From a virus: a DNA stretch of 53,944 nt. The DNA lies in IMG/VR virus record IMGVR_UViG_3300032144_000013, positions 1-53,944 of that record; one strand, 5' to 3'. Numbering within the stretch: the first letter of the stretch is position 1; each line of letters starts with the position of its first letter. A program made the position numbers and the translations under genes. Below, piece after piece: positions 1,036 through 53,908 of this stretch. Under the pieces are notes generated by a model. The model was given only the letters and a program-made list of their open reading frames with translations, searched no databases and was not told the DNA's origin.

Positions 1036-1045
1036 CTCGCTCCCT

Positions 1046-1369
1046 TCATCGGTTCTGTTTCGCTGAATTGCACGTTGCACACGCGCACTGGTGGTTGTCC
1101 TCGTCGTTGAACCACCGCTGATACTCCTCGCTGCCTACTGGCCCTTTGGTGCTCGGTGCCACCTTGTGGTCGATGTGAATGTCTGTGCTGTTCGCTGGCA
1201 GCAATCCCTTGCAGATACCGCAGTACGGTCCGTCTCGTTGGATCAGTGCGTAGATGCGTACCTTGCGAGTCTTCTGCCACTGCCATGTGTAGCCGCGTTG
1301 GTTGCTGCTGGCCCTGCGTTCTGGCCGCTTGGTCCTGCGTGGCCGTAGGGTCTTAGGTGCGGTTGGCAT
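1046..1369 (-). CDS. small HNH endonuclease
   Basis: A 107-aa protein with a basic N-terminus (many Arg and Lys), then CGIC, then the HIDHKVAPSTKG core and a closing CATCN pair. These are the metal-binding and catalytic parts of a compact HNH nuclease, and the length fits single-domain HNH proteins. It follows the Tat-leader gene at 1353-1658 with a short overlap and lies just upstream of the larger HNH gene, so two HNH genes stand in tandem. Nicking or packaging roles are both possible. Confidence 0.82.
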   Translation of the reverse strand: MPTAPKTLRPRRTKRPERRASSNQRGYTWQWQKTRKVRIYALIQRDGPYCGICKGLLPANSTDIHIDHKVAPSTKGPVGSEEYQRWFNDEDNHQCACATCNSAKQNR

Positions 1370-20661: not shown

Positions 20662-20964
20662 TCAGGTCGCCTTTTCCTTCGACCGCCAGAACTTATCGTT
20701 GGCCTTCCACGTTTCGTGCATCGCACGCGCCTCTTCAGAGACACGCCTTCCTGATTCAACGTCCGTTGTGATTAACACGGCGTTAGAACACGCGGGAACA
20801 ATCAGCAGCCGGTCTCCACCAATCACGTCTCCCCAACACCTGACTTCTACGGTGTGTTCGTCGTGCCTCGTGACCTCGATGTTCCAGCCATCTCCAACGA
20901 GACGCGCACACCGAATCGGCTCGGAATTCTCGGTTAGAATGTCAAACGAAACGAATTCGCTCAT
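20662..20964 (-). CDS. hypothetical protein
   Basis: A 100-aa protein from the ATG at 20962-20964, with GGAG upstream and an ATGA overlap with the HNH gene. Mostly beta at the start (FVSFDILTENSEPIRCARL) and through the middle (WNIEVTRHDEHTVEVRCWG), then a charged helix. No family recognised. Confidence 0.55.
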   Translation of the reverse strand: MSEFVSFDILTENSEPIRCARLVGDGWNIEVTRHDEHTVEVRCWGDVIGGDRLLIVPACSNAVLITTDVESGRRVSEEARAMHETWKANDKFWRSKEKAT

Positions 20965-21632
20965 CGGTACTCCAACGGTTCGCAGCTTCCACACCTCGGC
21001 GCTGTTGTAATTGCCAGCTCCGGATCCCAGCCCTTTCTCAGGCGAGCCCGAATCGTCGCCCGATTGACTCCGGTCTCCTCGGACCACTCCGTGAGACACT
21101 TCGTTGCCCCGAATGCTGTGATCCGAACGGTGTTCCTTCTGTTGACGCTCTGCTCTCCGATTGTCGCCCAGCGGCAATTGTTCGGCTCGTAGTTGCCGTT
21201 CACGTCGATGCGGTCAATTGAGTGCTGTAGAGACGGGCGTGGCCCCATGTCCTCGACAAAGTTCTCGAATGATTCGTCCCACCTTTGGCACACGGTTATT
21301 CCCCGTCCACCGTAGTAGCGGTACGCCTTGCTCTTTGGATCTCGGCACCGCTGGCGCATCGACCGCCACGGCCAATACGACGTCGATGATTCGCGCCTGT
21401 CCTCTTCCGCCTTTGTTCGCTTTCGGTTCCGATCTGCAAGTACCTCTCGCGCCAAGCAGCCGCAACTTTGGGTTTTTCCGTTTCGCAAGTGCGTCGCTAT
21501 GGACATTGCGACTTGACCGCAGTCGCAATCGCACTTCCAAACCACGGACCGTCGTTCTCGATTCTCAGTCGGACCGACGACCACGAGCCTGCCGAACCTC
21601 TGGCCGGTGATGTCCTTTGCGTTCTGGTGCAT
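20961..21632 (-). CDS. HNH endonuclease of the GQRFGRL...YGGRGI phage family
   Basis: A 223-aa protein, GGAGG upstream. It opens DITGQRFGRLVVVG, then CDCDCGQ and CGC zinc ligands, YYGGRGITVCQRW, EDMGPRPS, HSIDRIDVNGNYEPNNCRW, and a C-terminal helix-turn-helix (LTEWSEETGVNRATI). This is the second complete copy of the family in the window. It lies between early genes, consistent with a free-standing homing element. Confidence 0.85.
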   Translation of the reverse strand: MHQNAKDITGQRFGRLVVVGPTENRERRSVVWKCDCDCGQVAMSIATHLRNGKTQSCGCLAREVLADRNRKRTKAEEDRRESSTSYWPWRSMRQRCRDPKSKAYRYYGGRGITVCQRWDESFENFVEDMGPRPSLQHSIDRIDVNGNYEPNNCRWATIGEQSVNRRNTVRITAFGATKCLTEWSEETGVNRATIRARLRKGWDPELAITTAPRCGSCEPLEYR

Positions 21633-23166: not shown

Positions 23167-23460
23167 TCAACCCCGAAACTGAGCCGTCGAAATCTGAATC
23201 GTCACCGAATGGCAAACGTCCCTCGCGTGCGTGTTCAGTCGCATCGCGTCCTCCCACACCAGGCCGAGCACCGTCGCCCACTTTTCGCACTCACGCGGCA
23301 CGCAAATTTCATCAGCCAGCGTCGCCATCAACGCCGTTCGAATCGACTCCCGCGCCTTCGCCGCAATCGGGTTCCGCGTCCGCTCCAGCAATGTCACGAA
23401 CATCTCCCAGTCGTGACGCTCCAGGGTCAGGTTGCAGGTGCGTTCTGCTGTTGCTGGCAT
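23167..23460 (-). CDS. small hypothetical protein
   Basis: A 97-aa protein from the ATG at 23458-23460 that overlaps the end of the replication gene. Begins MPATAERTCNLTLERHDWEM and is mostly helical, with three Cys (CNLT, CVPREC, CHS). No family recognised. Confidence 0.57.
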   Translation of the reverse strand: MPATAERTCNLTLERHDWEMFVTLLERTRNPIAAKARESIRTALMATLADEICVPRECEKWATVLGLVWEDAMRLNTHARDVCHSVTIQISTAQFRG

Positions 23461-24407
23461 TACGTCGCTCCGTTGTTGCGGCTGCGAATTCGGAACCGGG
23501 CGATATGCTCGATGCACGAGCTTGACCTGCGTCCCTGTTCCCGCCAGTTTGTTTGCAAGCCCAGCTTCCCCTTGAAAGCCGCCGCCGCCAGCCCATCAAG
23601 CTCGTCGTCACCAAGCGCCCGCACTGCGTCGCACTCAGCCCAGATGTCGTCGCTCCGCGCCACCGGCCGCGTCCGCTTCGGCCAGCCTTCGTCTGCCGGC
23701 TGACCGGGAACCATCGCGTCCAGCTTCATGCCGAGAGCACCAGGGCCATCGAACTCTTCCCGATGCGACCGCCAGTAATCCAGTGCCGCCTCGACCTGTT
23801 CGATTGGAACCCCGCTGTCCCGACAGCGCTCGACTTTGACCCGAGCCGTTGCTAGTCCCATCTTCGAAGCCGCCGCCGCCGCCATAGTCCATGCGTTCGA
23901 CTCCGCGTGCTCGCCGCGTGCGGTGGTGGTGGTGGTGGTGGGGCTTGGCGTGGCTTGACATGACGTGGTGGGGATAGTGCCGTCACTAGTCACGGTGTAA
24001 GTCGCCTCACTAGTCGTCTCTCCAGTGGCGACATAAGTCGGGTCACTAGTCGGGGTGTAAGTCGGGTCACTAGTCTCGGATGCGAATTTCAATCCCGACC
24101 TTTTGAGTTTGCTTCGAACCCAGTTCGGACAATGCTGGTGCCAGTCGTGGACAACTAGGCGATGCGTTTCGTGGGAATCGAGCCACCCGGATACAACCAA
24201 TGCACTAACGAACTCTGATGCGTCTCCCTCCCAGTCGCACCACTTCGCGATCACCCCGTCCGAAAACTTCCCTACATTGCCGCTGATGGCAAACTCAGAG
24301 ACCCCGTCCCATAGAAGCTCCAGATAGCCGATGGCCGTCGGACGCGAGCAATTAAGTCGCGTGCGCAGTTCATCCAGCTTCGGATGTCTCTTTGCCCCCA
24401 TCTTCAT
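23460..24407 (-). CDS. replication-initiator-like protein with winged-helix N-terminus
   Basis: A 315-aa protein starting at the ATG at 24405-24407, coupled to the ERF gene (ATGA). The N-terminal part KRHPKLDELRTRLNCSRPTA and LELLWDGVSEFA resembles phage replication proteins and DnaD/GntR-type winged helices. A low-complexity SDPTYTPTSDPTYVATG linker follows (about residues 115-160), then a second helical domain with MAAAAASKMGLATARVKVER. The repetitive linker is encoded by direct DNA repeats that may form the origin, as in lambda gene O. A helicase loader or ATPase was not found. Confidence 0.65.
   Translation of the reverse strand: MKMGAKRHPKLDELRTRLNCSRPTAIGYLELLWDGVSEFAISGNVGKFSDGVIAKWCDWEGDASEFVSALVVSGWLDSHETHRLVVHDWHQHCPNWVRSKLKRSGLKFASETSDPTYTPTSDPTYVATGETTSEATYTVTSDGTIPTTSCQATPSPTTTTTTARGEHAESNAWTMAAAAASKMGLATARVKVERCRDSGVPIEQVEAALDYWRSHREEFDGPGALGMKLDAMVPGQPADEGWPKRTRPVARSDDIWAECDAVRALGDDELDGLAAAAFKGKLGLQTNWREQGRRSSSCIEHIARFRIRSRNNGAT
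23984..24075. repeat. four CACTAGTC direct repeats, candidate origin iterons
   Basis: CACTAGTC occurs at 23984, 24008, 24044 and 24068. The spacings are 24, 36 and 24, all multiples of 12. Two copies share GTAAGTCG upstream and one ATAAGTCG. The core ACTAGT is itself symmetric. The repeats lie in the linker part of the replication gene, like iterons of lambda ori. They could instead reflect only the repeated peptide. Confidence 0.6.
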
Positions 24408-25282
24408 CAGACGCTGAATCCCTGTTCGCTGCTCATGCCCAGGTTCCGCTGGCACATCTCCAGCGCCGGCCGGTCCCACGATGCCGGGTCGCGCAACTTG
24501 TCGTCGGGGATGTCCGTCCACTGACGCAGCATCCCGCGAAACTGCTCTTTGCTTCCCTCGGGGTTCTGCACCGTCCAGAACTTCCACATGGCTTGGATCT
24601 CATCCAGAGTCACCGGCGCTCGCTGTGGCTTACGCTGCGGCTCCGGGTCGGGCATTGCGCCGTCGGCGTCCTCGTCTCCAGTCGTGATGCCGAGCACGGA
24701 CAGCAGGGCGTACCTCCGGCCGTAGCTATTGCGGACGCCCTCGCACTGGATGTTGTTGATGTTTGCCGACTGATACTGCGGCAGAGTCACGCTGGCCGAC
24801 CGGCTGTGCCCATCAACGTGATGCAGGTTGCAGCGGAATGCGCCGGACCCGTCGGTGTCGAACGTGAACGAGAAACCGTTGGCTTTCAGGTGCGGCTTGA
24901 CCACCGCGACAATGTGATTCAGATCCGCGAAGTCGTAGCCCCACACGCCGCCGGTCTTCGATTTGATTTCCGCCGTGCGGTTCTTCGAAACGGGCGGGCA
25001 CGCCGCCTGAAAGTCCTGAAACGCGCGGTTGAACGCCATCTCTGCGTTCTTCTCCATCACCCGCAGTTGCAGGTTGACCAGCTTCTCCATCGTGTCGGCG
25101 TCAACGCCGCGCTCGACGGCCAGGCTGATGACGGAGCCGATGTCAGAACTCTGCGTACTCCGGCTGGGAAGGCTCGGTTGAACCTTCGCCGGCAGTTGCG
25201 TCTCCGCAACCAATTCCGATTCGCATGCACTGGTCGATGTACCAGAGCGGGAGTCCACCTGGTCGAATAAAGCGGCTGTCAT
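24407..25282 (-). CDS. erf: ERF-family single-strand annealing recombinase
   Basis: A 291-aa protein from the ATG at 25280-25282. The first 60 residues are Ser/Thr-rich and variable. The core has FNRAFQDFQAACPPVSKNRT, GVWGYDFADLNHIVAVVKPH, QCEGVRNSYGRRYALLSVLG and a long helical C-terminus, the ERF signature. ERF proteins anneal complementary single strands. The preceding RecE-like nuclease would make those strands, and its gene overlaps this one by about 140 bases. Confidence 0.85.
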   Translation of the reverse strand: MTAALFDQVDSRSGTSTSACESELVAETQLPAKVQPSLPSRSTQSSDIGSVISLAVERGVDADTMEKLVNLQLRVMEKNAEMAFNRAFQDFQAACPPVSKNRTAEIKSKTGGVWGYDFADLNHIVAVVKPHLKANGFSFTFDTDGSGAFRCNLHHVDGHSRSASVTLPQYQSANINNIQCEGVRNSYGRRYALLSVLGITTGDEDADGAMPDPEPQRKPQRAPVTLDEIQAMWKFWTVQNPEGSKEQFRGMLRQWTDIPDDKLRDPASWDRPALEMCQRNLGMSSEQGFSV

Positions 25283-26150
25283 AGACGTACCCTCGATAGT
25301 CTTCGCGTTGTTGAGCGGCAGCGAACCGCCCGATGATGTCGTTGTTCTCATGCCTCCCGATGGCGAGCGTCTGCTTGCTGACCGGGACAATGTTCACGTC
25401 GTACGGCGGGCCGTCCTCAACAACGACCCAGACCCCTTCTGCAGTCACGCCCTCAAGTGCCTCGATGGCTTCGATGTTGCCAGCCATCTGCCTGTGATAT
25501 CCAAATCTGTGAACGGACTTCTCGAACTCCTCTCTCGCCCCCTTTCCTGGCAGGCACTTTTTCACGTCGAGCACTCGCGGGCGCGGTGACTTTGAGAACC
25601 GGTCAATCCGGCACTTCCGCAACACGCCATGACGCGACTCCCAGATGCAGGACAGTTCCGTCCAGCACTCGCCGCGAAACAGCCGCATGCAGTCGTGATT
25701 CTTCAGCGCCTCCGCACATGCTTCCGCCTGCTCCGCTTCGGATTCGTCGATGTAGTCGCGCGGCTCATTGCAGTCCTCCGACTTGTGCGTCCCGCAGAAC
25801 CAGTTCGCACCGTCGTAGAATCTTCCGGACGCAGCACAACGCTTGCCTTTGTTCGGGCCGCTCGACAGCAACCGCGAGCACTTCGTCGCGACCAGGAACT
25901 CCGCCGCGTACCGCTCCGGCTCAAGCAGCCGGCAGTGAATCGCCCGACCCAGCTTCATGTCGTCGGTGTCTTTGCGGACGAACTCGCCGTCGAGCGCCGC
26001 CCGCATGTGCTTCATGCTGATGAGCCCGGCGCTGACAACTCCGGAGTTGATGGCACGCACTGCGGCGTACTGCTCAAAGCTCCAGTCGCTGTAGGTGCCA
26101 GGGACAATCTCAGCGTCCGGCACTTCAGGCATGAGTGTTGTTCCGTCCAT
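25143..26150 (-). CDS. RecE/PDDEXK-type exonuclease with Cys insertion
   Basis: A 335-aa protein. His72 in KLGRAIHCRLLEPER, Glu165 in TELSCIW, Asp183, the D195-x-K197 in VLDVKKC, and Gln221 in GYHRQ form the RecB-like nuclease signature in the right order. Residues 91-127 hold C91, C105, C119, H122 and C127 in an insert that could bind zinc or an Fe-S cluster. It probably resects double-strand ends for the ERF annealase. The Cys insert is less usual. Confidence 0.82.
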   Translation of the reverse strand: MDGTTLMPEVPDAEIVPGTYSDWSFEQYAAVRAINSGVVSAGLISMKHMRAALDGEFVRKDTDDMKLGRAIHCRLLEPERYAAEFLVATKCSRLLSSGPNKGKRCAASGRFYDGANWFCGTHKSEDCNEPRDYIDESEAEQAEACAEALKNHDCMRLFRGECWTELSCIWESRHGVLRKCRIDRFSKSPRPRVLDVKKCLPGKGAREEFEKSVHRFGYHRQMAGNIEAIEALEGVTAEGVWVVVEDGPPYDVNIVPVSKQTLAIGRHENNDIIGRFAAAQQREDYRGYVYDSRFIRPGGLPLWYIDQCMRIGIGCGDATAGEGSTEPSQPEYAEF

Positions 26151-26260
26151 CGGTTCTCCAGGTATCCACACGTCCGCTCGTACTCTTCCTGCATCGCAAT
26201 GAACCGCCCGCAGTCGCCGCACACGTGGGCCTTGCGGGCGCGAACGACCGAGCTACGCAT
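26012..26260 (-). CDS. small zinc-binding protein overlapping the exonuclease gene
   Basis: An 82-aa product. The first 50 residues have ARKAHVCGDCGRFIAMQEEY, CGYLENRW and CLKCR, a convincing zinc-binding family. The remainder overlaps the exonuclease gene for 139 bases in another frame and becomes low in complexity (SSTPQCVPSTPELSAPGSSA). Its start overlaps the preceding LexA-type HTH gene. Either the two genes truly share bases or the C-terminus is drift. Confidence 0.6.
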   Translation of the reverse strand: MRSSVVRARKAHVCGDCGRFIAMQEEYERTCGYLENRWTEQHSCLKCRTLRLSLAPTATGALSSTPQCVPSTPELSAPGSSA

Positions 26261-26528
26261 CCCATTCCTCCAACGGCACCAGCACGTAGGTTTTGCCGCC
26301 CGAGTTCACCTTCAGACCGTCCAGGTCCGTCAGGCGTATGTTGCGGCTCTTGGTGTCTCCGCGTTCAATCAGCCCCTTTGACTCCAGTGCGTTCAGATGG
26401 CAGACAACTCCATTCGGACAACTGACATCGATCAGCGGCATCAACTCGCGGACGGTCGGGCCGACCACCGCCAGGTTCTCGGTGATTGCCGCGAGTACTT
26501 CACTTTGCCGCTGCGTGAGCTGGCTCAC
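26253..26528 (-). CDS. LexA-type winged-helix protein
   Basis: A 91-aa protein from GTG 26526-26528. SQLTQRQSEVLAAITENLAV and PTVRELMPLIDVSCPNGVVC resemble the N-terminal DNA-binding domain of LexA repressors, and a basic/acidic C-terminus replaces the peptidase. Without the autocleaving part it would be a SOS-like binder not cleaved by RecA. Sited before the recombination genes, it may regulate them. Confidence 0.68.
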   Translation of the reverse strand: MSQLTQRQSEVLAAITENLAVVGPTVRELMPLIDVSCPNGVVCHLNALESKGLIERGDTKSRNIRLTDLDGLKVNSGGKTYVLVPLEEWDA

Positions 26529-26724
26529 TGGATTTCTCCGTGTAGTTGCCGTCCCCGTCGATGCGCCCGAGCACGGCGTCCAAGTGCTCGCGAATCGCCG
26601 ACACGTCCCCGTCGTGCGTCTGACGGTCGAGCGCACACAGCAGGTCGGCGCACGACTTCAGCTTGCCGACGTCCGACTTCGTGAACCGAATCCGCACTCC
26701 CGCACCCTGCACAAGAATGTTCAT
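26500..26724 (-). CDS. small hypothetical protein
   Basis: A 74-aa protein from the ATG at 26722-26724 with AAGGGTG upstream. Helical: TKSDVGKLKSCADLLCALDR and an acidic C-terminus. No family recognised. Confidence 0.57.
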   Translation of the reverse strand: MNILVQGAGVRIRFTKSDVGKLKSCADLLCALDRQTHDGDVSAIREHLDAVLGRIDGDGNYTEKSSEPAHAAAK

Positions 26725-27250: not shown

Positions 27251-27384
27251 GCTTTTGAGCCTCTAAGCACACTCGGAACACTCCGCCGCAGGACGATCCG
27301 ACGGCGACATCTCAGACGCACCAGGCACCAGCATGCGTAGCCGATGAACGCGAGCATGACGGCCGACGCGATGATGTGGGTCAT
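27247..27384 (-). CDS. 45-aa single-pass membrane protein
   Basis: ATG at 27382-27384 overlaps the upstream gene's stop. One membrane helix (IIASAVMLAFIGYACWCLV) followed by an Arg-rich cytosolic tail. No signal cleavage site. Its function is unknown. Confidence 0.5.
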   Translation of the reverse strand: MTHIIASAVMLAFIGYACWCLVRLRCRRRIVLRRSVPSVLRGSKA

Positions 27385-28127
27385 GGCGTCACCTCGCGCC
27401 ACTGCTCCTCCGTCCCGCGCGTGAACTTCTGCTCGATCCTTCGTGGCTTCGGCAGGTCCACGAAGCCGCACCATGTCTTTGTCCAAGTTGTGCCGTCAGA
27501 AGCGACGATGGTCTCTCGGTGCATGTCCGTCGCGACCCACGGCTCCTCCAGCGGGCCGATGTATCGCACGAGGTCTTCTGTGCACGGCCCGCTGGTTGGG
27601 TACCAACCGTCTTCTTTCCACGTTCGACCAGAGCCGTGGACGGTCCCGTTCCACCAGTCGCGAGTTCCAGCGAGACGCGAGTTGACAGTCGCCCGCCTCC
27701 CATCCCGCGTCTCGTACACGCCCGGCCCGTGCTCGCTGATGGAGAACGGCTTGGGAATCGGGCTGGCGATGTAGAAAGGCTCCTCACGCGGGTACTTGGC
27801 GTCGAATTCAACGGCGGTCAAACCAACGTGCTCCGGTGCATCAAAGCAAAGCCACCCGCCTCGATTTCCGATGATCTTGTCCTCCCTGCGGTACTTATGG
27901 GTCTCTCTGTCGGCCAACTGAAAGCCTTCCGGTGGAGTCGGCGGGTCGGGAGGCTTTGGACCCTTGATGTCCGCGTAGTACGGCGAATAGCCGTCCTCAC
28001 ACTCCCACACACCTCCTGCGCCATCCGAGTAGAACCCGAACGCCCACCCGCCTTCGATGTGAACGACTCGGCACGGAAGGCCGTTCGTGTCCACGTACTC
28101 ACCGAGGCTCGGAATTATGTTGCTCAT
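27381..28127 (-). CDS. 248-aa hypothetical protein, Trp/Gly/Asp-rich
   Basis: A 248-aa protein with many aromatic and Gly/Asp residues (CRVVHIEGGWAFGFYSDG; GRTWKEDGWYPTSGP). It looks like a mainly beta protein. It follows the csrA-like gene by a short overlap (ATGA). No enzyme motif is seen. It may be a host takeover or morphogenesis factor, but I cannot assign it. Confidence 0.6.
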   Translation of the reverse strand: MSNIIPSLGEYVDTNGLPCRVVHIEGGWAFGFYSDGAGGVWECEDGYSPYYADIKGPKPPDPPTPPEGFQLADRETHKYRREDKIIGNRGGWLCFDAPEHVGLTAVEFDAKYPREEPFYIASPIPKPFSISEHGPGVYETRDGRRATVNSRLAGTRDWWNGTVHGSGRTWKEDGWYPTSGPCTEDLVRYIGPLEEPWVATDMHRETIVASDGTTWTKTWCGFVDLPKPRRIEQKFTRGTEEQWREVTP

Positions 28128-28321
28128 GCTCGCGCCTCCCCTCCCAAATCGAATTCGTCCGGCTCGTCGTCACGCGGAATCAACTCGCTCCGCACGATGT
28201 TCACGCTGCGGTCGGCTTCCACGCCGACACGCACGTATCCGTCCTTCGATTTCAGAATCGTGAACCGCGCCGGTCCATCGACTTCGATTGACGTTCCCAC
28301 TGTGCGTCCAAGACAAAGCAT
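28124..28321 (-). CDS. csrA: CsrA-like RNA-binding regulator
   Basis: A 65-aa protein from the ATG at 28319-28321, with GGGAGG upstream. MLCLGRTVGTSIEVDG and the YVRVGVEADRSV and INIVRSELIPRD-like parts match CsrA from first residue to last, with an acidic C-terminal tail. Leu4, Arg6, Ile42 and Arg44 occupy the positions important for RNA binding in E. coli CsrA (L4, R6, V42, R44). The protein would dimerise and bind GGA-containing leaders. A phage csrA could reset host carbon or motility control or regulate phage translation. Confidence 0.85.
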   Translation of the reverse strand: MLCLGRTVGTSIEVDGPARFTILKSKDGYVRVGVEADRSVNIVRSELIPRDDEPDEFDLGGEARA

Positions 28322-28337
28322 CGTTTCCTCCCTGGTT

Positions 28338-28392
28338 AAAAAACCCGGCGCTACGGACATCCGTTTCTGTGCGTCCATGTTGCCGCGCCGGG
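28338..28392 (-). terminator. hairpin with U-tract in the csrA leader
   Basis: On the minus strand CCCGGCGC (28385-28392 side) pairs with GCGCCGGG, then TTTTTT. The loop holds AUGGACG and ACGGAUG, GGA motifs that CsrA often binds. It can end the transcript from the preceding genes or act as a csrA attenuator. The ribosome site AGGGAGGAAACG has two further GGA. Confidence 0.72.
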
Positions 28393-28403
28393 CTGCTCCT
28401 ACG

Positions 28404-28781
28404 TCAGCCGACAATCGTTGCTTCCTGAATGCACACCCTCAGTTCACCGCGAGACGCCCCGTAGTTGCGGGACACGTGGTACACCTTGCCATCAACTCGC
28501 GCAGTGACGCTGCCCTGCATCCTCAGCATCAATCGCTCCTCCACGTCCATTAGCTGCGCCCGGAGTGCGACGTGCTTGCCGACCAGATCCAAAAATTCCG
28601 TGTCCATTCGTATCTCCCCTGTGACAGTCCGCCCGACGCCCTTTTCTTTGAACGCATCCCACCCTGCGGCGCGCCGGTCGAATTCGCTCGACTCCTCGTG
28701 CCCATATGCGTCCGTGTTGCCGCGCATGTTGCGAACTCCGATGTTCAGAAACGCGATGGATGCCGATTCGAGCGGTGTCAC
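28404..28781 (-). CDS. hypothetical protein
   Basis: A 125-aa protein from GTG 28779-28781, overlapping the upstream stop as GTGA. The last 65 residues could be made alone from an ATG at 28607 with GGGGAG. The C-terminal portion has LMLRMQGSVTARVDGKVYHV, a beta pattern; the rest is helical and charged. No family recognised. Confidence 0.55.
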   Translation of the reverse strand: MTPLESASIAFLNIGVRNMRGNTDAYGHEESSEFDRRAAGWDAFKEKGVGRTVTGEIRMDTEFLDLVGKHVALRAQLMDVEERLMLRMQGSVTARVDGKVYHVSRNYGASRGELRVCIQEATIVG

Positions 28782-28930
28782 TTCTTGTTGCTTCCCGGAC
28801 AACGGTAGCCTCCGCTCTGGTAGCGCTGCCGAACCTTCGCGTCTGTGATTCCTGAGTTCATCATCGTTGCCCACGACGCAACTCGGATTCGTCGGCGCTT
28901 GTCGGATTTCTTGGCGTCCAAGTGCATCAT
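28778..28930 (-). CDS. 50-aa basic protein
   Basis: ATG at 28928-28930 with GAGGGG upstream. Basic (MMHLDAKKSDKRRRIRVASW), one Cys, and a helix. Function unknown. It heads the short string of genes before csrA. Between this gene and 29113 I see only a 22-codon TTG frame (28981-29049) with Cys residues and no convincing ribosome site. Confidence 0.5.
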   Translation of the reverse strand: MMHLDAKKSDKRRRIRVASWATMMNSGITDAKVRQRYQSGGYRCPGSNKK

Positions 28931-29112
28931 CCCGTCCCCCTCGTTGTTGAAACCGGCCGCCGTCTCCCCACCTTGACGCGCTACTGACAACCCGTGCACG
29001 AGTCGCAGTTGTCGCCTTCGTGGAACGTCAGCCGGGGTTGTTGTTCCAAAGTGCCCGGTTAGCCAGTGCCGAGTACCGGGCGTCCTCGGTCTACGTCTCT
29101 CAACGCTGGCAG

Positions 29113-29184
29113 TGCCCACGGCAGGATTCGAACCTGCAATCTCCGGCGTTCCTTCCGGTGGCTATGCCATTTGCCTACGTGGGT
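29113..29184 (-). tRNA. degenerate tRNA-like gene, anticodon undetermined
   Basis: 72 nt. The 7-bp acceptor (6 pairs plus an A-C mismatch), a D arm with GGC/GCC, a 5-bp T stem with TTCGAAT loop and a 73rd A are clear. The anticodon arm is 16 nt, one short of the usual 17: CCGG pairs with CCGG around an eight-base loop AAGGAACG that lacks the conserved U33. It may be a decayed tRNA, a recoding tRNA or another tRNA-mimic. Confidence 0.6.
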
Positions 29185-29823: not shown

Positions 29824-30591
29824 CTACAGCAGTCCTAGATCTCGGTTCGTGCAAGCGTGCTCGCCGAACAACTCGATTGCCTTCTTGTCGTATGCTCGCG
29901 CCGCTTCAACCTCCGTCGCGAACCGGCCCACGTGCACCTGCTTCCGGTCAACAGTGATCGTCACCTTGAACGGTCGTGGACCGCGCTTTTCGCGGTACAC
30001 GCCCTTGAACGGGGATGACGCACCCCCTTCACGAATAACCTTCGCCGCGTTCCTGCCGTTTTCTCCCGACGTGACAACCCGAAGATTCTGTCTGCGGTTG
30101 TTCAGCCTGTTCCTGTCGCGGTGGTCGGTTTCCATGCCAGTTGGAGTTTTTGCGATTAGTCGGTGCATCGCGCCAGCGGATGCAGACCATGCGTACCCAG
30201 TCGGCGACAAGTACCACGAATGCTCCGCAACCAGGGGAGCGTCCTCGGCGTCGCACAGCGCGCATTCAGACGTGTTTCCGAGAGGAACCTTCGCAATGCC
30301 GTTCACGATGACTACCGCCGTCGTGTTCTTGCGAATCAGGTTGCATCTCCGGCAGTCGAGAGGATTGCCGTTTAGGTGTCTCACGTGCTCGCCCTTGCTG
30401 GTTTCGAGAATGAAACCGGGGAGCCGCGCGTACCCGCCCTTCCTGTCCGACGCCGATGTCTGAACGAATCTTTTTCCGTTCGCCGACGTTGCCACCCGCC
30501 AACGCATGCTCGACACTGACGGCAGATCGACAGCATCGACGATGATTTTCTCACCGCCAATTGCGGTGACTTCGGCAACCGCCTGTTGCAT
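29824..30591 (-). CDS. HNH endonuclease with C-terminal AP2 domain
   Basis: A 255-aa protein from the ATG at 30589-30591, GGAG upstream. A first strand-rich part with RHLNGNPLDCRRCNLIRKNT resembles an HNH core. A second one, DHRDRNRLNNRRQNLR, follows near residue 160. The AP2-type end reads SSPFKGVYREKRGPRPFKV and FATEVEAARAYDKKAIELFG. Such HNH-AP2 proteins are typical mobile homing nucleases. Confidence 0.82.
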   Translation of the reverse strand: MQQAVAEVTAIGGEKIIVDAVDLPSVSSMRWRVATSANGKRFVQTSASDRKGGYARLPGFILETSKGEHVRHLNGNPLDCRRCNLIRKNTTAVVIVNGIAKVPLGNTSECALCDAEDAPLVAEHSWYLSPTGYAWSASAGAMHRLIAKTPTGMETDHRDRNRLNNRRQNLRVVTSGENGRNAAKVIREGGASSPFKGVYREKRGPRPFKVTITVDRKQVHVGRFATEVEAARAYDKKAIELFGEHACTNRDLGLL

Positions 30592-30736
30592 GGAACGTCT
30601 CCGTCGCACATCCGACGGGTCGCTCAAGAATGAGCAAAGCGTCGGCGATCTCCTGAGTTCGTCATCGGGTCTCACGCCGATTCGGAACTCACCAAAAGTC
30701 AAAGCCGCGTATCAGGCCAGCCCCGACACGCGGCAT

Positions 30737-31303: not shown

Positions 31304-31374
31304 TTCCCTCGGTTGGAATCGAACCAACGACTCGGCGATGTAAGCGCCGCGCGTTGCCATTACGCCACGAGGGA
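31304..31374 (-). tRNA. tRNA-Val (anticodon UAC)
   Basis: 71 nt with a perfect 7-bp acceptor stem (TCCCTCG/CGAGGGA), D arm, 5-bp anticodon stem CGGCG/CGCCG, loop CTTACAT with U33 and anticodon TAC, a 4-nt variable region, 5-bp T stem GTTGG/CCAAC and an A discriminator. No CCA is encoded. Located between the integrase and the HTH gene. Confidence 0.85.
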
Positions 31375-31599: not shown

Positions 31600-32592
31600 A
31601 TGTCTCAATCTCACCTCGCTGCACGCCGGGCCACATCGGGCGTTCGCATGCAAGATGCCTTCGACGGCACAGCCGCGCGCCGTCTCAATGCGCGGACCTG
31701 TTTCGACACGCTCTACAAGCTGTGGGCACCAGACCTGGCCCCACGCACGGAGCGCCGCTACAGGCATGAGCTGAACCGATGGGAAAAGCTCACCAACGAT
31801 CCGCCGTTGTCCGAGATTTCGACAACGCTCTATCAGCAGTTCCGGGCATCCTCTTCCCAGCTCGGACACGCTGCCGGCACAACCGAATCGACCCTGAGAT
31901 TCATCCGGCAACTGATGCGCTGTGCCCTCGCGCACGGGGCCATCAACGTCATCCCCGATCGGGGCCGCGCCCGGCGCATTGACGCTCCACAGCCGCACCC
32001 GCCGTCGATCGACGAACTCGACCGAATGTTCCGGGTCTGCGAGGTGGCGCGCTGGCCGCGACTCCACGTTCCCACGAAAATATTCTGGCGAAGCTGGATG
32101 GCCGTGGCACTATGGACGGCACTGCGCCGCGAGGACATTTTCTGGCGGTTGGCACTGGAGCACATCGACTTCAAGGAAAGCCGCATCCTGTTCCGGGCGC
32201 ACAAGAGCAGCGTCCCGCATACGTTCCCCTTGAACGAGATCGTCACCCGCCACATTCGGGCAATGGTCCCCACATTCTCCCACAACACCCGCCGCGTGCT
32301 GTTCAACCCGTCGCGAAGTCCGCACCTGATTCAGCGCGAGCTTGACCGGATGGCAGACGCTGCTGAAGTGCGCAGGATCACCCCGCAGAACTTCCGGCAG
32401 GCGGGAATCAATATGTGGACGATTGCCGATCCCAGGGCCGGAGAAGTCATCCACGGCGTCGGAATCCCCCGCGTCCTGAGCCACTACCTCGACCGGCTCC
32501 AGATTTTGAAGAACGCCGCCGACAACGTGATTGTCCCCGCGTCAATGACGGAGTTTGGCTCTGGTCGCCGGCAGGGGACGCTGTTCGATTGA
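31600..32592 (+). CDS. int: tyrosine-type integrase/recombinase
   Basis: A 330-aa plus-strand protein. The core-binding N-terminus includes LAPRTERRYRHELNRWEKL. The catalytic part has ALRREDIFW (Arg176 or Arg177), AHKSS (Lys202), and TPQNFRQAG in the place of the usual HxxR (Arg266), with VLSHYLDRL carrying a candidate Tyr296 nucleophile. The HxxR His is replaced by Gln. A start at ATG 31648 is possible. GGAGG lies upstream, but it fits another frame better. Very likely the phage integrase. Confidence 0.75.
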   Translation: MSQSHLAARRATSGVRMQDAFDGTAARRLNARTCFDTLYKLWAPDLAPRTERRYRHELNRWEKLTNDPPLSEISTTLYQQFRASSSQLGHAAGTTESTLRFIRQLMRCALAHGAINVIPDRGRARRIDAPQPHPPSIDELDRMFRVCEVARWPRLHVPTKIFWRSWMAVALWTALRREDIFWRLALEHIDFKESRILFRAHKSSVPHTFPLNEIVTRHIRAMVPTFSHNTRRVLFNPSRSPHLIQRELDRMADAAEVRRITPQNFRQAGINMWTIADPRAGEVIHGVGIPRVLSHYLDRLQILKNAADNVIVPASMTEFGSGRRQGTLFD

Positions 32593-32715: not shown

Positions 32716-33849
32716 ATGAAGCGTTCTGGCTTCACGATGATTGAAATGCTCGTTGTGCTCTCGATCATCCTGCTGCTGTTCGGCCTGACAATGACCGTCA
32801 TTACGGCGTCGATGGACAACGCCAGGGCCGACGCGACGCGAACGACGGTCAGCTACATCGACAAGGCGATCGAGGACCGCATCGAAGCGCTGGGTCGGAA
32901 CAATGTCCGATCACACGCCCGCGCGTTCATGGTGGCGTATAACGTAATCAACGCGGACAAGATCGACGAACCGCTGGCTCGCGTCATTGTCACCAAAGAC
33001 CGATTCCAGCAGGCGCTGCCGACCCGATTGGAGGATATGTTCGGTCTCGACGGCACTCCGGGGACTCAGGACGACAGCCCGCTCTGGAGAGTCTGGAAGA
33101 AGACGATGAACGCGAATGGCATCGTCACCACTGACGCCGACATCCGGCCGACCGGGCACATCCGGGAGAACGAGAACGCCGAACTGCTCTATCTGTTTCT
33201 GACTGAAGGCGCGACCTACGGAGAGATACGGTTCCGCAGCGACGACATTATCACGCGGCACCTACGGGATTCGCCGATCGACACTGACGGCAACGGGTCG
33301 TTCGACAGACCCGGCAACGGAATCCCCGAGATCATCGACGAGTGGGGCAACCGGATCCGGTTCTACGGCTGGACTCACAAGCTCACGCGGCCAGGTGGCG
33401 GAACTACGGACATCAATCAGCCGCTGTTCACGGCAACGGCTGGACACATGCTGAACACGATCAACCCTCCGGCGTCCCCAGTGCCGTTCACGATGACCGG
33501 CCACATGGACAGTCCGCTGAATCAGGATCCAGACGACCCGTACGGGCGGCTCTCTGCCGCACAGAACTCAACCGGCTTCGCGTCTGCCCCGTACCAGATT
33601 CGCCTGCCGTCAGGTGCAGTCGTGACGTGCAAGGCGTTCAACGAGGACAACTATCACCCTCTCGACACGTACAGCATTCCGCTTGTTGTGTCGGCTGGAC
33701 CGGACGGAGTTCTCGGTCTGGTAGAGCCGACCGGCTTTGATCCGATGACCGGAAACTATGACGCGGACCTGCGCACGGCCGAACCGCTTGGGTATCGTGC
33801 TGCGTGGCGCACGGACGCTGTCTACGACAACATCACGGCGCACAACTAG
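32716..33849 (+). CDS. type II secretion/type IV-like pseudopilin
   Basis: A 377-aa plus-strand protein with GGGGGAAG upstream. MKRSGFTMIEMLVVLSIILL is a class-III prepilin leader (G5, F6, E10 after the cleavage site). A calcium-loop-like DTDGNGSFDRPGNG and DEWGNRIRFYG follow, the D-x-WG phrase of pseudopilins. It lies alone between integrase and the tail block, as an accessory (moron) gene. The host prepilin peptidase would have to process it. A tail or conversion role is possible. Confidence 0.82.
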   Translation: MKRSGFTMIEMLVVLSIILLLFGLTMTVITASMDNARADATRTTVSYIDKAIEDRIEALGRNNVRSHARAFMVAYNVINADKIDEPLARVIVTKDRFQQALPTRLEDMFGLDGTPGTQDDSPLWRVWKKTMNANGIVTTDADIRPTGHIRENENAELLYLFLTEGATYGEIRFRSDDIITRHLRDSPIDTDGNGSFDRPGNGIPEIIDEWGNRIRFYGWTHKLTRPGGGTTDINQPLFTATAGHMLNTINPPASPVPFTMTGHMDSPLNQDPDDPYGRLSAAQNSTGFASAPYQIRLPSGAVVTCKAFNEDNYHPLDTYSIPLVVSAGPDGVLGLVEPTGFDPMTGNYDADLRTAEPLGYRAAWRTDAVYDNITAHN

Positions 33850-47000: not shown

Positions 47001-47394
47001 CTTCGATCTCCAGTTCTGCCGCCACGGCAACCGCGACTTCCAGTTCCGGTGCGACTTCCTCACAAACGACTTCGGCGACAGGCACCGCACCGTCGAATCC
47101 CGGAACGATCTTGTCGGCTGTCAGCGCCAGCGCCTGAGTGCCCAGCCAGTCGTTGACGTGCCCAACCGCGTTCCGCTCGCGTTCGGAGAATGAATCGCCA
47201 CGACTGAACCGAAGCCGCAGCGCCACGTCGTCGGCCGCTGTATCTCCCATTGCCGCGCGAACGTATTCCACAACGCCAGCGTGCCACTCTTCGGCCACTG
47301 AGAAGTCGCCGAATGATGCCTGACCGCCTCCGCAGGCCGCGTCACCATCGCGTGCCAGCGCCAGCAACCCGTCGCGCACTTCCTGAACAGTCAT
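46975..47394 (-). CDS. hypothetical acidic protein
   Basis: A 139-aa protein with Val/Ala/Glu-rich end (VAEVVCEEVAPELEVAVAVA) and a helical start (MTVQEVRDGLLALARDGDAA). The last third is low in complexity. Placed between epimerase and HTH genes. No family recognised. Confidence 0.55.
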   Translation of the reverse strand: MTVQEVRDGLLALARDGDAACGGGQASFGDFSVAEEWHAGVVEYVRAAMGDTAADDVALRLRFSRGDSFSERERNAVGHVNDWLGTQALALTADKIVPGFDGAVPVAEVVCEEVAPELEVAVAVAAELEIEDGDTGPRD

Positions 47395-48446
47395 GCCACC
47401 TCCCTTTGCTGTTGTGCTTCGACGATCTCCGCGACCGTCTGTTCCAATGAATACTCCTGCCGCCAGTTCGGATAAGCCGCCTCAAACTTCCGCGTGTCCG
47501 TGATCCACCATTTGTGGTCGCCCATGCGCGGCTCTGCGACGTGCTCCAGAGTCATCTTCCGACCCGACAGCCGCTCCGCCATCGCAATCGCCTCCAGCAC
47601 GCTACAGGACCGCTCAGGACCGCCGCCGATGTTGTAGACCGCTCCCGGCGTCGGGTTGTTCACGTACTCCACGAACGCCCGCACGAGGTCGCTGGCGTGG
47701 ATGTTGTCGCGCACCTGCTTCCCGCCGTAGCCGATGACCTTGTACTGCGTCCCGTTCACGACGCACTTGCACAGGTACGACAGGAACCCGTGTTGCTCGA
47801 CGCCCGCGTGTCCCGGTCCCGTCAGGCACCCGCCCCGGAAACAGACGGTGTTCATGCCGAAGTAGCGGCCGTACTCCTGCACGTAGACGTCTGCGGCGAG
47901 TTTTGAGCAGCCGAATAGGGAATGGGTGCACTGGTCGATAGGTGTCAACTCGTCGAAGCCATGTGGAAACGATGGCACGTCAAATCGCGTCTCGTGGACA
48001 TGCATCGCTAACTGGTTCGGCCAGTCGCCGTAGACCTTGTTCGTGGAGCAGTGGACGAACGCTGCATGAGGGCACCATGCGCGCGTCATTTCCAGCATGT
48101 TCAGCGTGCCAGTCGCGTTTACGTGGAAGTCTGCGGTTGGGGCCGTGGCCGCCCAGTCATGCGAAGGTTGCGCCGCCGTGTGAATCACAGCCTCTATTTG
48201 GTCTCCATATCCCGCGAACATGTGCGAGTAACGGTCCGGTTCCCTTATGTCCGCTTGCACATGCCAATATCCGGGGCACAATCCGTGAAGGACTGCGGAG
48301 GTGTTGTCCGTGCACCCGCCCTCCCCGAAGAATTGGCGGCGACAGTTGTTGTCAATCCCGACAACGCGATACCCCAGCGCCGCGAACTGCCGCACCGCTT
48401 CCGATCCCACAAGCCCGGCGCTGCCGGTGACGATGACGGTTTTCAT
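47391..48446 (-). CDS. NAD-dependent sugar-nucleotide epimerase/dehydratase
   Basis: A 351-aa protein from the ATG at 48444-48446. MKTVIVTGSAGLVGSEAVRQ has the GxxGxxG NAD-binding loop; HTAAQPSHDWAAT, HCSTNKVYGD and HSLFGCSKLAADVYVQEYG cover the catalytic part with Lys in FGCSK, the Tyr position being Phe as in the CDP-tyvelose/paratose-epimerase-like group I recall. It likely makes a nucleotide sugar for the glycosyltransferases downstream. It stands within the head operon. Confidence 0.82.
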   Translation of the reverse strand: MKTVIVTGSAGLVGSEAVRQFAALGYRVVGIDNNCRRQFFGEGGCTDNTSAVLHGLCPGYWHVQADIREPDRYSHMFAGYGDQIEAVIHTAAQPSHDWAATAPTADFHVNATGTLNMLEMTRAWCPHAAFVHCSTNKVYGDWPNQLAMHVHETRFDVPSFPHGFDELTPIDQCTHSLFGCSKLAADVYVQEYGRYFGMNTVCFRGGCLTGPGHAGVEQHGFLSYLCKCVVNGTQYKVIGYGGKQVRDNIHASDLVRAFVEYVNNPTPGAVYNIGGGPERSCSVLEAIAMAERLSGRKMTLEHVAEPRMGDHKWWITDTRKFEAAYPNWRQEYSLEQTVAEIVEAQQQREVA

Positions 48447-48661
48447 GCTCGCTGTGCTCCGCAACCACGACAACGACCGTTCTCTGGTTCGCCACTGCTG
48501 CCGCAGAACAAGCAATCTCCGGACGGCTGCACCGGTGCGTTTCTGTCGTTCAGAATCACCACGCGACACCCGGTGCCGCTGTACGTGGCTTCCCATTCCC
48601 TCCGCAGTCTGTCGCGTGCTTCTCGCGACATTGGCGGCAGCGTCGGAACCGGCATCCCCAT
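48443..48661 (-). CDS. small zinc-finger protein
   Basis: A 72-aa protein with GAGGG upstream. CLFCGSSG and CRGCGAQ at the end give a four-Cys ribbon. A polar N-terminus. Overlaps the epimerase gene by four bases. It may be an adaptor or a regulatory protein. Confidence 0.6.
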   Translation of the reverse strand: MGMPVPTLPPMSREARDRLRREWEATYSGTGCRVVILNDRNAPVQPSGDCLFCGSSGEPENGRCRGCGAQRA

Positions 48662-51694: not shown

Positions 51695-51870
51695 GATTGC
51701 GGCCCCTTCGGTTTACGAAACAGACTCACCAGCGGGATCAGAGCCGCAAACGCACCAAGCGACAGCAATCCCGCCGGCGGATAAATCCACGCACACCCCG
51801 CCGACACGGACACCGCACCGGCCGCATACAGGCAATCCTCGGCGTCGAACATCTCACTGAGCCGCTTCAT
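51691..51870 (-). CDS. 59-aa membrane protein between large terminase and portal
   Basis: ATG 51868-51870 overlaps the large-terminase stop (ATGA) and the TGA overlaps the portal GTG (GTGA). The product has a charged N-terminus, then two hydrophobic parts (AAGAVSVSAGCAWIY; GLLSLGAFAALIPLVSLF) and a basic tail. The coupling strongly supports translation. Function unknown. Confidence 0.65.
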   Translation of the reverse strand: MKRLSEMFDAEDCLYAAGAVSVSAGCAWIYPPAGLLSLGAFAALIPLVSLFRKPKGPQS

Positions 51871-53483
51871 CAGCCAATCTCCAGAAAACCGCGATTCTCT
51901 CGGTCGTAGACGGATGCGGATGGCTCCGAAACATCCGACGCGCTCACCGCCATAATCAACGCCACCACACCGTCAATCTTCTCCAGAGACCTCTCCCGCG
52001 CCGGCCGCGTCCGCATGAACGCATCCGTCACACCAACCGCGTTCTGCACGTTCCAGTTGAGCACCGGGTGCCCGTTGTGCTTGATGTCCTGATTTCCCAC
52101 CATCGCCTGCAGCTTCTTGGTCGGTGACGCCATCGCGAACGCCTGCTGCGAATGCTTCAGCATCGTCAGCCCATAGTTCGACAGACGCTCGTACAGCCCC
52201 GACGCCTGCGCCCGGTCGAACGCGATGGTTCGGATGTCGTACATCGCCGCCAGGGATTCGAGCTTTTCTCCAATCGCCCGCTGCGAAATGAAGTCCCCGT
52301 CCGTCGGCTCGATGAACCCGCCGTCGAGCCACGTCTGGTAGGCAATGCCGTCCTGCGCCTGCCGCTTCGCCACGTTCTCAATCGGGCACCAGAACCACGC
52401 CAACGTCCGCTTGGACTCAGGGAAGAACAGCACGAACGCTGAAAAGTCCTTCTCCGTCGCCAAGTCCAGCCCGCCGAAGCATTCTTGCCCCAACAGGTCA
52501 TCCGGGTCGTACGCCTCATGGCAGGCATCCCAGAGCGGCATCGGAATCAGCCGGTTCGCGTGCGCCGTCTGCATGCACAGGTGCAGCCGCTTGAATCCGA
52601 TCTCCTCAGTCGGGTTGACCTTCGCCTTCTCGCACTCCCGCGCCAGATAGTTCTCGTCAACGGAGATCCCGTAGTTCGGGTTCGCCGCCTTCCACGTCTC
52701 CGGGTCAGTCCAGTCGGCGTCCTTCGGAGCCTCGTAAATCACAGGCAGGAATCCGGCATCGCATGCGCCGCCGTCCCGCACCTGATGCGCGTACTTGTAC
52801 TTCGTGTTGCAGACGCTTTCCCGGATGTAATCGGCCGTCGTGATGTAGACGATCAGCGGCTGCAGACCCTTCACCGCTGTACCAGTCGTCAGCGCTTCCA
52901 CGAGGTTCGCGTTCCGGTGCGCGTGCAGCTCGTCGATGATGGCAAAACACGGCCGCGAACCATGCTGAGCGCCGGCATCAGACGACGTGCTGCGGTAGAA
53001 CCCGCCCATGTCGTCCACTCGCTCGATGACCTTCGACGACGGAACAATCCGCGTCAGTTCGGCCATCTCCTCGTTCGCCTTAATCATCCGGCAGGCGTCC
53101 TTGAAGATGAGCGCCGCCTGCTCCCGAGTCGAAGCCGCAGAGAAGTATTGCCCGCCCGGTGTCGGCCGCATGAACATCTCCAGCAACAGCAGCCCCGCAG
53201 CACAACTGGTCTTGCCGTTTTTTCGCGGCAAATAGATGAACGCCTCCCGGTATCGCCGCCGCCCGGCCGCCGTCTCCCAGCCGTAGAGGTTCCCGACGAT
53301 CGCCTGCTGCCACGGCTGCAACTCGAACGGTTGCCCAGCGCGCTCGCCGTCCGGGAACGTCAGCATGTCGCGGAAGAACCCGACGGCATCCTCTGCCCGC
53401 GCAGCGTCGAACTCCCACCCGTCGGCGTCGCGCCACGGGTCATAGCCGGGAATCAGAGTTCGGCAGGCTTCTTCGACGGTCAT
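51870..53483 (-). CDS. terL: large terminase subunit
   Basis: A 537-aa protein from the ATG at 53481-53483. Walker A PRKNGKT at 86-92, Walker B FAIIDE at 180-185, coupling HAHRNANLVEALTTGT, and a nuclease beginning GGLDLATEKDFSAF with Asp340. This is the HK97-type packaging motor and DNA cutter. It overlaps the small subunit gene by four bases. Length is normal. Confidence 0.92.
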   Translation of the reverse strand: MTVEEACRTLIPGYDPWRDADGWEFDAARAEDAVGFFRDMLTFPDGERAGQPFELQPWQQAIVGNLYGWETAAGRRRYREAFIYLPRKNGKTSCAAGLLLLEMFMRPTPGGQYFSAASTREQAALIFKDACRMIKANEEMAELTRIVPSSKVIERVDDMGGFYRSTSSDAGAQHGSRPCFAIIDELHAHRNANLVEALTTGTAVKGLQPLIVYITTADYIRESVCNTKYKYAHQVRDGGACDAGFLPVIYEAPKDADWTDPETWKAANPNYGISVDENYLARECEKAKVNPTEEIGFKRLHLCMQTAHANRLIPMPLWDACHEAYDPDDLLGQECFGGLDLATEKDFSAFVLFFPESKRTLAWFWCPIENVAKRQAQDGIAYQTWLDGGFIEPTDGDFISQRAIGEKLESLAAMYDIRTIAFDRAQASGLYERLSNYGLTMLKHSQQAFAMASPTKKLQAMVGNQDIKHNGHPVLNWNVQNAVGVTDAFMRTRPARERSLEKIDGVVALIMAVSASDVSEPSASVYDRENRGFLEIG

Positions 53484-53908
53484 GCTCGCTTGATGTACCC
53501 CTTCCGGTTCTTCGGCAGGCCTGGCTCTGTCCGCACCGAGGTCTTGCTTGCCGGCGTCAGGCCGAACTCCCGAGCCACCTTCATGAAGTCGTCGAACGCT
53601 TCCTTGCACTGCTTCCACAGCGGGTCGTCGATGTCCCGCAACCGGCACTCTGTGACCAGCGTCTGGTACCGCTGCCATCGCTCACACAGCGCCGCAAGAC
53701 TCTCCTGCCATGCCGGCGACAGGATCCCCTGATTCCGTAGCCGGTCCACCTGCCGGTCCCACAACGCGGAGCCGTACTCGCCGAGATTGGCAGGCTTGAC
53801 CGGATCGCCAGGCACGATTGCAACCTCGCCCTTCCGCTCGGACGTGTGATGCGAACCCTGCAGCCGCAAGACCTCCAGCGGTCTCGGTGGTCGCCCTTTA
53901 CCGGCCAT
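53480..53908 (-). CDS. terS: small terminase subunit (P27 family)
   Basis: A 142-aa protein, GGAGGG upstream. MAGKGRPPRPLEVLRLQGSH and PGDPVKPANLGEYGSALWDR, then RLRNQGILSPAWQESLAALC match P27-type TerS. It recognises phage DNA for packaging. Beyond the start only 36 bases remain; they show the ribosome site and no stop in the frame that would join the HNH gene across a circle. Confidence 0.85.
   Translation of the reverse strand: MAGKGRPPRPLEVLRLQGSHHTSERKGEVAIVPGDPVKPANLGEYGSALWDRQVDRLRNQGILSPAWQESLAALCERWQRYQTLVTECRLRDIDDPLWKQCKEAFDDFMKVAREFGLTPASKTSVRTEPGLPKNRKGYIKRA

What the first reader, a model, noticed from the sequence alone, without database searches (positions are those of the whole stretch)
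28124..28321. Phage-encoded CsrA with key RNA-binding positions kept
A 65-aa CsrA homologue has Leu4, Arg6, Ile42 and Arg44 at the positions that bind RNA in E. coli CsrA. Phage csrA genes are uncommon. It may redirect host metabolism or motility, or control phage mRNAs.
Basis: partly seen in the sequence, partly recalled or inferred. Interest (0 to 1): 0.7.

Follow-up and report, generated by a model that had tools for sequence, protein, structure and literature searches.

The report
Divergent CsrA regulator in a phage
A temperate phage, probably of planctomycetes, carries a real but unusually divergent gene for CsrA, a small protein that controls translation by binding messenger RNA; phages carrying such genes are already known, so this is a new member of a known kind.

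Summary
A 65-aa minus-strand ORF (28321 to 28124) is a CsrA-family protein: Pfam 40.7 bits, cut-off 27; its model matches CsrA/RsmA chains at PDB ranks 1-15. Leu4, Arg6, Ile42 and Arg44 are present. The window is a phage record.

Phage csrA is known: one csrA query hits 83 of 50,697 phage records; papers report 30 of 2,517 phages (PMC7366521), many in IMG/VR (PMC8450108), and a knock-down that shrinks plaques (PMC11879866).

New here: it has the longest terminal branch of 52 compared proteins. At positions 3, 5, 7 and 10 it differs from all 51 others, at 37 from 50, while core GGA-binding residues stay. Relatives of the phage's prepilin-like protein sit in 22 of 392 Planctomycetota genomes, all with 5-16 csrA copies; its nearest terminases sit in a class with none (0 of 17).

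Most likely it binds GGA sites in host mRNAs and alters their translation; phage leaders show no excess of ANGGA sites outside Shine-Dalgarno stretches. RNA binding and targets are untested.

The parts
28124..28321 (-). csrA-like gene, 65 aa
   Evidence: Pfam PF02599 40.7 bits; PHROG 9500; AlphaFold model, mean pLDDT 82, Foldseek PDB ranks 1-15 all CsrA/RsmA
28327..28333 (-). Shine-Dalgarno AGGGAGG of csrA, with two neighbouring GGA
   Evidence: read from sequence
28343..28393 (-). terminator-like hairpin with T tract directly upstream of the csrA ribosome site; none of 82 other predicted genes of the window has one in the tested stretch
   Evidence: function inferred
28357..28362 (-). GGATGT in the inner part of that hairpin; equals the last six letters of the CsrA SELEX consensus RUACARGGAUGU
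   Evidence: sequence; consensus from PMC3791407 passage; a 6-base match can be chance
27381..28127 (-). 248-aa ORF overlapping the csrA stop by ATGA; no Pfam or PHROG family, no relative in viral contigs
28404..28874 (-). ORF upstream of csrA, ends just before the hairpin; no family
26253..26636 (-). protein with LexA-type DNA-binding domain, downstream in the same direction
   Evidence: Pfam PF01726 E 2.1e-13
31600..32592 (+). tyrosine integrase
   Evidence: PHROG 1 E 1.2e-15; Pfam PF00589 below cut-off
32716..33849 (+). prepilin-like protein (N_methyl), used as host clue
   Evidence: Pfam PF07963 above cut-off; relatives
51870..53678 (-). terminase large subunit, used as host clue
   Evidence: PHROG 9 E 7.3e-144

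Best explanation
The gene encodes a phage CsrA: a small protein expected to form a domain-swapped dimer and bind A(N)GGA sites that overlap ribosome-binding sites, mostly in host mRNAs, so that it blocks or stabilises selected host messages during infection or lysogeny. Shown: the gene, its family, the fold and the conserved core contact residues. Inferred: dimer formation, RNA binding, host mRNAs as the main targets, and benefit to the phage. The probable hosts already run a CsrA network (an order with 5-16 copies), so the phage protein would bias an existing network rather than bring in a new one. Changed residues at 3, 5, 7, 10 and 37 suggest a shifted target choice.
For: Family and fold. 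L4, R6, R44 and E46 are kept here and in 51 of 51 compared proteins; A36 in 50 of 51. R44 is essential in RsmA and loss of its equivalent R62 in RsmN lowers affinity over 1,000-fold (PMC3791407 passages). Host clue: all 22 of 392 genomes with a relative of the phage prepilin-like protein carry 5-16 csrA; P0001 finds relatives in 131 of 170 genomes of that order against 8 of 149 in a phylum sample. Precedent: phage csrA correlates with host csrA, and RsmA represses CRISPR-Cas in Serratia (PMC8450108, passages); knock-down of the phage PTXU04 csrA homologue reduced plaque size (PMC11879866, passages). No sign of phage-leader targets.
Against: No target is identified. The nearest terminase relatives (44-47% identity) lie in a Planctomycetota class in which 0 of 17 genomes have csrA; if that is the host, there is no host network to bias. 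Residue 5 is Gly, so the Ser/Thr5 hydroxyl contact to the closing base pair is missing; residue 7 is Thr instead of Lys/Arg. The C-terminal helix is barely predicted (three residues, low confidence after residue 50), and truncation into that helix abolished RsmA function (PMC3791407).
Confidence: 0.58

Rival explanations
1. It controls phage mRNAs, above all its own operon: the terminator-like hairpin just upstream of csrA holds GGATGT, and the Shine-Dalgarno sites of csrA and of the overlapping downstream gene hold doubled GGA, so CsrA could feed back on its own transcript by attenuation or by blocking ribosomes.
For: Hairpin, T tract and GGATGT upstream. A terminator-like hairpin precedes 4 of 26 phage csrA genes (window, L002, L135, L143) against 10 of 286 other genes in the same loci, one-sided Fisher p 0.02; chosen after looking, and two of the 26 rows are identical.
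Against: GGA in a hairpin loop is no commoner in phage csrA leaders (4 of 25) than in other leaders (36 of 280), p 0.42, and the window leader is not among the 4. ANGGA is not enriched upstream of the phage's 84 predicted genes outside the Shine-Dalgarno stretch. The leader as a whole folds no better than shuffles, z -0.58. The terminator may simply end the upstream unit.
Confidence: 0.2
2. It is a modified CsrA that works by mixing with host CsrA subunits: each binding site takes strand 1 from one chain and strand 5 from the other, so the altered strand 1 (Cys3, Gly5, Thr7) would create hybrid sites with changed or reduced affinity.
For: Substitutions cluster in strand 1 (3, 5, 7) while strand 5 (40-44) is typical; the probable hosts have many CsrA proteins. 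The make-up of the site from two chains is recalled knowledge of the family.
Against: No evidence of mixed dimers; the core contacts L4, R6 and R44 are intact, which argues against a plain inhibitor.
Confidence: 0.14
3. It is a passenger gene picked up from a csrA-rich host, with no role for the phage and drifting.
For: Longest terminal branch of 52 sequences; no csrA found in the 19-kb partial record with 86% terminase identity.
Against: Open frame, good ribosome site, positive codon-use score and retained core contact residues speak for selection; the 19-kb record is partial.
Confidence: 0.08

Closest known systems
CsrA/RsmA family, PF02599 (E. coli CsrA, P. aeruginosa RsmA, P. protegens RsmE)
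   Same: Fold, length, L4, R6, A36, R44, E46; 36-38% identity over 47 columns in the best structural matches
   Different: Cys3, Gly5, Thr7, Thr10, Asp37; short predicted helix and acidic C-terminal tail
Phage-borne csrA (Pseudomonas rsmM phages, Vibrio phages; PHROG 9500)
   Same: Single-domain csrA in a phage genome, annotated as such in public records
   Different: P0001 itself finds no match in 50,697 phage records at E up to 1; only three relatives in viral contigs by peptide pattern
csrA homologue PTXU04_00028 of phage PTXU04
   Same: Phage csrA; knock-down reduces plaque size (PMC11879866, passages)
   Different: Different phage; sequence not compared here
Plasmid and ICE csrA (S. meliloti pMBA19a; Legionella ICE csrT)
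   Same: csrA on a mobile element (PMC7366521 and PMC8450108, passages)
   Different: Not a phage; sequences not compared here

Membership tests
CsrA family (PF02599) | Profile match above the curated cut-off | tested here: met
   40.7 bits against 27
CsrA family (PF02599) | CsrA fold | tested here: met
   Model pLDDT 82, pTM 0.56; PDB ranks 1-15 all CsrA/RsmA, TM 0.47-0.67 by query length, best E 4.2e-3. Monomer model only
CsrA family (PF02599) | Arg44, essential for RNA binding | tested here: met
   essentiality from PMC3791407 and PMC7366521
CsrA family (PF02599) | Domain-swapped homodimer | not testable with these tools
   no complex prediction was available
CsrA family (PF02599) | Binds A(N)GGA RNA and complements a csrA mutant | not testable with these tools
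   needs experiment
CsrA family, typical members (not a defining feature) | Ser/Thr at 5, Lys/Arg at 7, Glu/Gln at 10, Pro at 37 | tested here: not met
   Gly5, Thr7, Thr10, Asp37. Among 51 others: Ser or Thr at 5 in 47, Lys/Arg at 7 in 51, Glu/Gln at 10 in 51, Pro at 37 in 50
CsrA family (helix 1) | C-terminal helix after strand 5 | tested here: inconclusive
   three helical residues and low confidence after residue 50; viral L004 also ends at 52 aa
Phage-borne csrA | Gene lies inside a phage genome | tested here: met
   phage genes on both sides: terminase, portal, protease, capsid, integrase, Erf, exonuclease

The most novel reading that the evidence does not exclude
In a bacterial order whose cells run 5-16 CsrA proteins, the phage adds one with a rebuilt strand 1 but a standard strand 5, which pairs with host CsrA chains to form hybrid binding sites and so retunes many host messages at once: takeover of a whole translation-control network by subunit mixing.
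Probability: 0.1. Interest if true: 0.7.

Novelty: new member of a known kind. Interest (0 to 1): 0.32.

Why it matters
Phage csrA genes are known, but what they bind has hardly been tested. This one comes with a probable host order that has an unusually large CsrA set and with a clear list of changed positions, so it could show whether phage CsrA copies host target choice or shifts it.

Tried and rejected
GGA hairpins in phage leaders: no excess. Whole leader fold: ordinary, z -0.58. A conserved hairpin-with-GGA autoregulation across phage csrA leaders looked attractive by eye after (L126, L139, L141) but failed the control count. Relatives of the downstream gene in viral contigs: none. Relatives of the exonuclease in viral contigs gave only distant phages (best identities 24-30%) and were not pursued. 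Rfam: two tRNAs only. Host assignment: the two clues disagree; prepilin relatives point to the csrA-rich order, terminase relatives to a class without csrA. The Fisher value for prepilin against csrA copy number printed mixes two samples and is not used. Searches for csrA multiplicity in planctomycetes in print (listings only) showed no paper on it; this is a search of one open-access library with those terms only.

Rows dropped: the tree and residue tallies left out L133, L137, L139 and L142 (fusion, duplicate, truncated, fusion), 4 of 25 viral csrA loci. One search left out duplicate L137. The host rows are the 30 best-scoring loci, chosen for likeness to P0001, not a random sample. One search extracted host proteins badly (several wrong or missing) and was replaced.

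Full report
What is there. The coordinates hold a 65-aa ORF on the minus strand. It is a CsrA protein by Pfam (40.7 bits, cut-off 27), by PHROGs, by weak but top-ranked PDB sequence matches, all CsrA/RsmA kin at ranks 1-9 of 10, and by fold: the AlphaFold model (23-sequence alignment, mean pLDDT 82, pTM 0.56) matches CsrA/RsmA chains at ranks 1-15, none below E 0.001 because the protein is small, and later ranks are mostly unrelated. The window is an IMG/VR virus record, linear. Terminase, portal, head protease, major head protein and a head-tail adaptor lie at the high end, integrase at 31600-32592, exonuclease, Erf-like protein and replication initiation protein at 23460-26222. So this is a gene of a temperate-type phage. 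csrA sits among small genes of unknown function; the next gene overlaps it by ATGA and has no known family.

How typical is it. I compared the protein with 21 viral CsrA proteins (of 25 viral csrA loci found) and the 30 best host relatives. L2, L4, R6, A36, R44, E46 follow the family. At position 3 (Cys), 5 (Gly), 7 (Thr) and 10 (Thr) no other of the 51 shares its residue; at 37 (Asp) one does, L002. It has the longest terminal branch in the tree, though a tree of about 60 columns is weak. In RsmE, Thr5 touches the closing base pair of the RNA hairpin, as Ser7 does in RsmN, and the guanines are read mainly through the backbone of strand 5 (PMC3791407, passages).

How common. P0001 itself has no match in 50,697 phage records and three relatives among viral contigs by peptide pattern, one of them (L003) a CsrA-like protein below the Pfam cut-off. 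A planctomycete CsrA as query finds 83 of 50,697 phage records and 23 viral contigs, both lower bounds. In print: 30 of 2,517 phages carry csrA (PMC7366521, passages); many in GenBank and IMG/VR, correlated with host csrA, proposed to exploit RsmA repression of CRISPR-Cas (PMC8450108, passages); a phage PTXU04 csrA homologue whose knock-down reduces plaque size (PMC11879866, passages). The kind is known.

Host. Terminase relatives occur in Planctomycetota genomes: 47 of 297 in one class, 4 of 17 in another with the best identities, three of them 44-47%. That second class has no csrA, 0 of 17. The terminase also has weaker relatives in other bacteria. The phage's prepilin-like protein has relatives at E 1e-10 or better in 22 of 392 Planctomycetota genomes. 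Seven of these were counted for csrA (7, 9, 9, 9, 9, 14, 16 matches) and 15 (5-13 matches): all 22 are csrA-rich, while in a sample of 149 genomes of the phylum 54 have any csrA and 8 have seven or more. The prepilin search scored at most five candidates per genome, so hits may be missed. I judge Planctomycetota likely and the csrA-rich order somewhat more likely than not.

Regulation. Directly upstream of the csrA ribosome site is a hairpin followed by six T; none of 82 other predicted genes in the window has one within the tested stretch. Across 26 phage csrA genes 4 have this against 10 of 286 other genes, p 0.02 one-sided, a post hoc count. Whether it only ends the upstream unit or attenuates csrA is open. 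Tests for CsrA sites were negative: ANGGA at -60..-21 in 84 predicted genes 9 against 15.1 (sd 3.7); the excess at -20..-1 (18 against 6.5) is what Shine-Dalgarno sites alone could give; GGA in hairpin loops 4 of 25 phage csrA leaders against 36 of 280 others. Gene starts were predicted by a simple script and may be off in places.

Conclusion. A genuine, divergent phage CsrA; function most likely control of host messages through GGA sites; binding, targets and benefit not shown. Ordinary in kind, with a clear set of changed residues and a csrA-rich probable host that make it a usable test case.

Noticed in passing
L133:2887-3231 (+): A 114-aa viral-contig protein fuses two CsrA units. The first has a good strand 1 (MLILTRR) but no strand 5; the second has a changed strand 1 (LLLVTKK) and a good strand 5 with Arg. 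If it folds like a CsrA dimer, it would hold exactly one complete RNA site in a single chain.
   Followed up: partly
Planctomycetota genomes G069, G090, G206, G226 and others: One order of Planctomycetota includes many genomes with 5-16 csrA copies, against 0-2 in most of the phylum sample. No paper on it showed in four listings.
   Followed up: partly
L209, L210, L211 (genome G206, contigs 19, 23, 24): Three similar element copies (88-96% in shared blocks) each carry csrA; in L210 it lies between a 218-aa ORF and a helix-turn-helix ORF, with a tyrosine integrase next to them: an apparent integrative element with csrA in three copies.
   Followed up: partly
L065 and L067 (G004 contig 73): A planctomycete frame of 406 aa holds two CsrA domains followed by a long leucine-rich-looking part.
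   Followed up: no
L142:3001-3606: A 201-aa viral protein with an N-terminal CsrA-like unit (no Arg at the positions of 6 and 44) and a long C-terminal part of another kind.
   Followed up: no
L003:4959-5153: A 65-aa CsrA-like protein in a viral contig shares SIEVDGPARF letter for letter with the window protein but has Ile at 6 and Lys at 44, so probably no canonical RNA binding.
   Followed up: partly
window 32716-33849 (+): A prepilin-like protein with N-terminal methylation motif next to the integrase, in opposite direction to nearly all other genes; possible cargo gene.
   Followed up: partly
window 29112-29184 (-): A tRNA gene for which ARAGORN reports a four-base anticodon (ggaa) and no amino acid; a second phage tRNA, Val (TAC), lies at 31304-31374.
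   Followed up: no
window 1-1080, 1903-2769, 20961-21632, 29824-30702 (all -): Four HNH endonuclease genes in one phage.
   Followed up: no
window 47391-48596 (-): A nucleotide-sugar epimerase PHROG match between the head protease and the major head protein genes.
   Followed up: no
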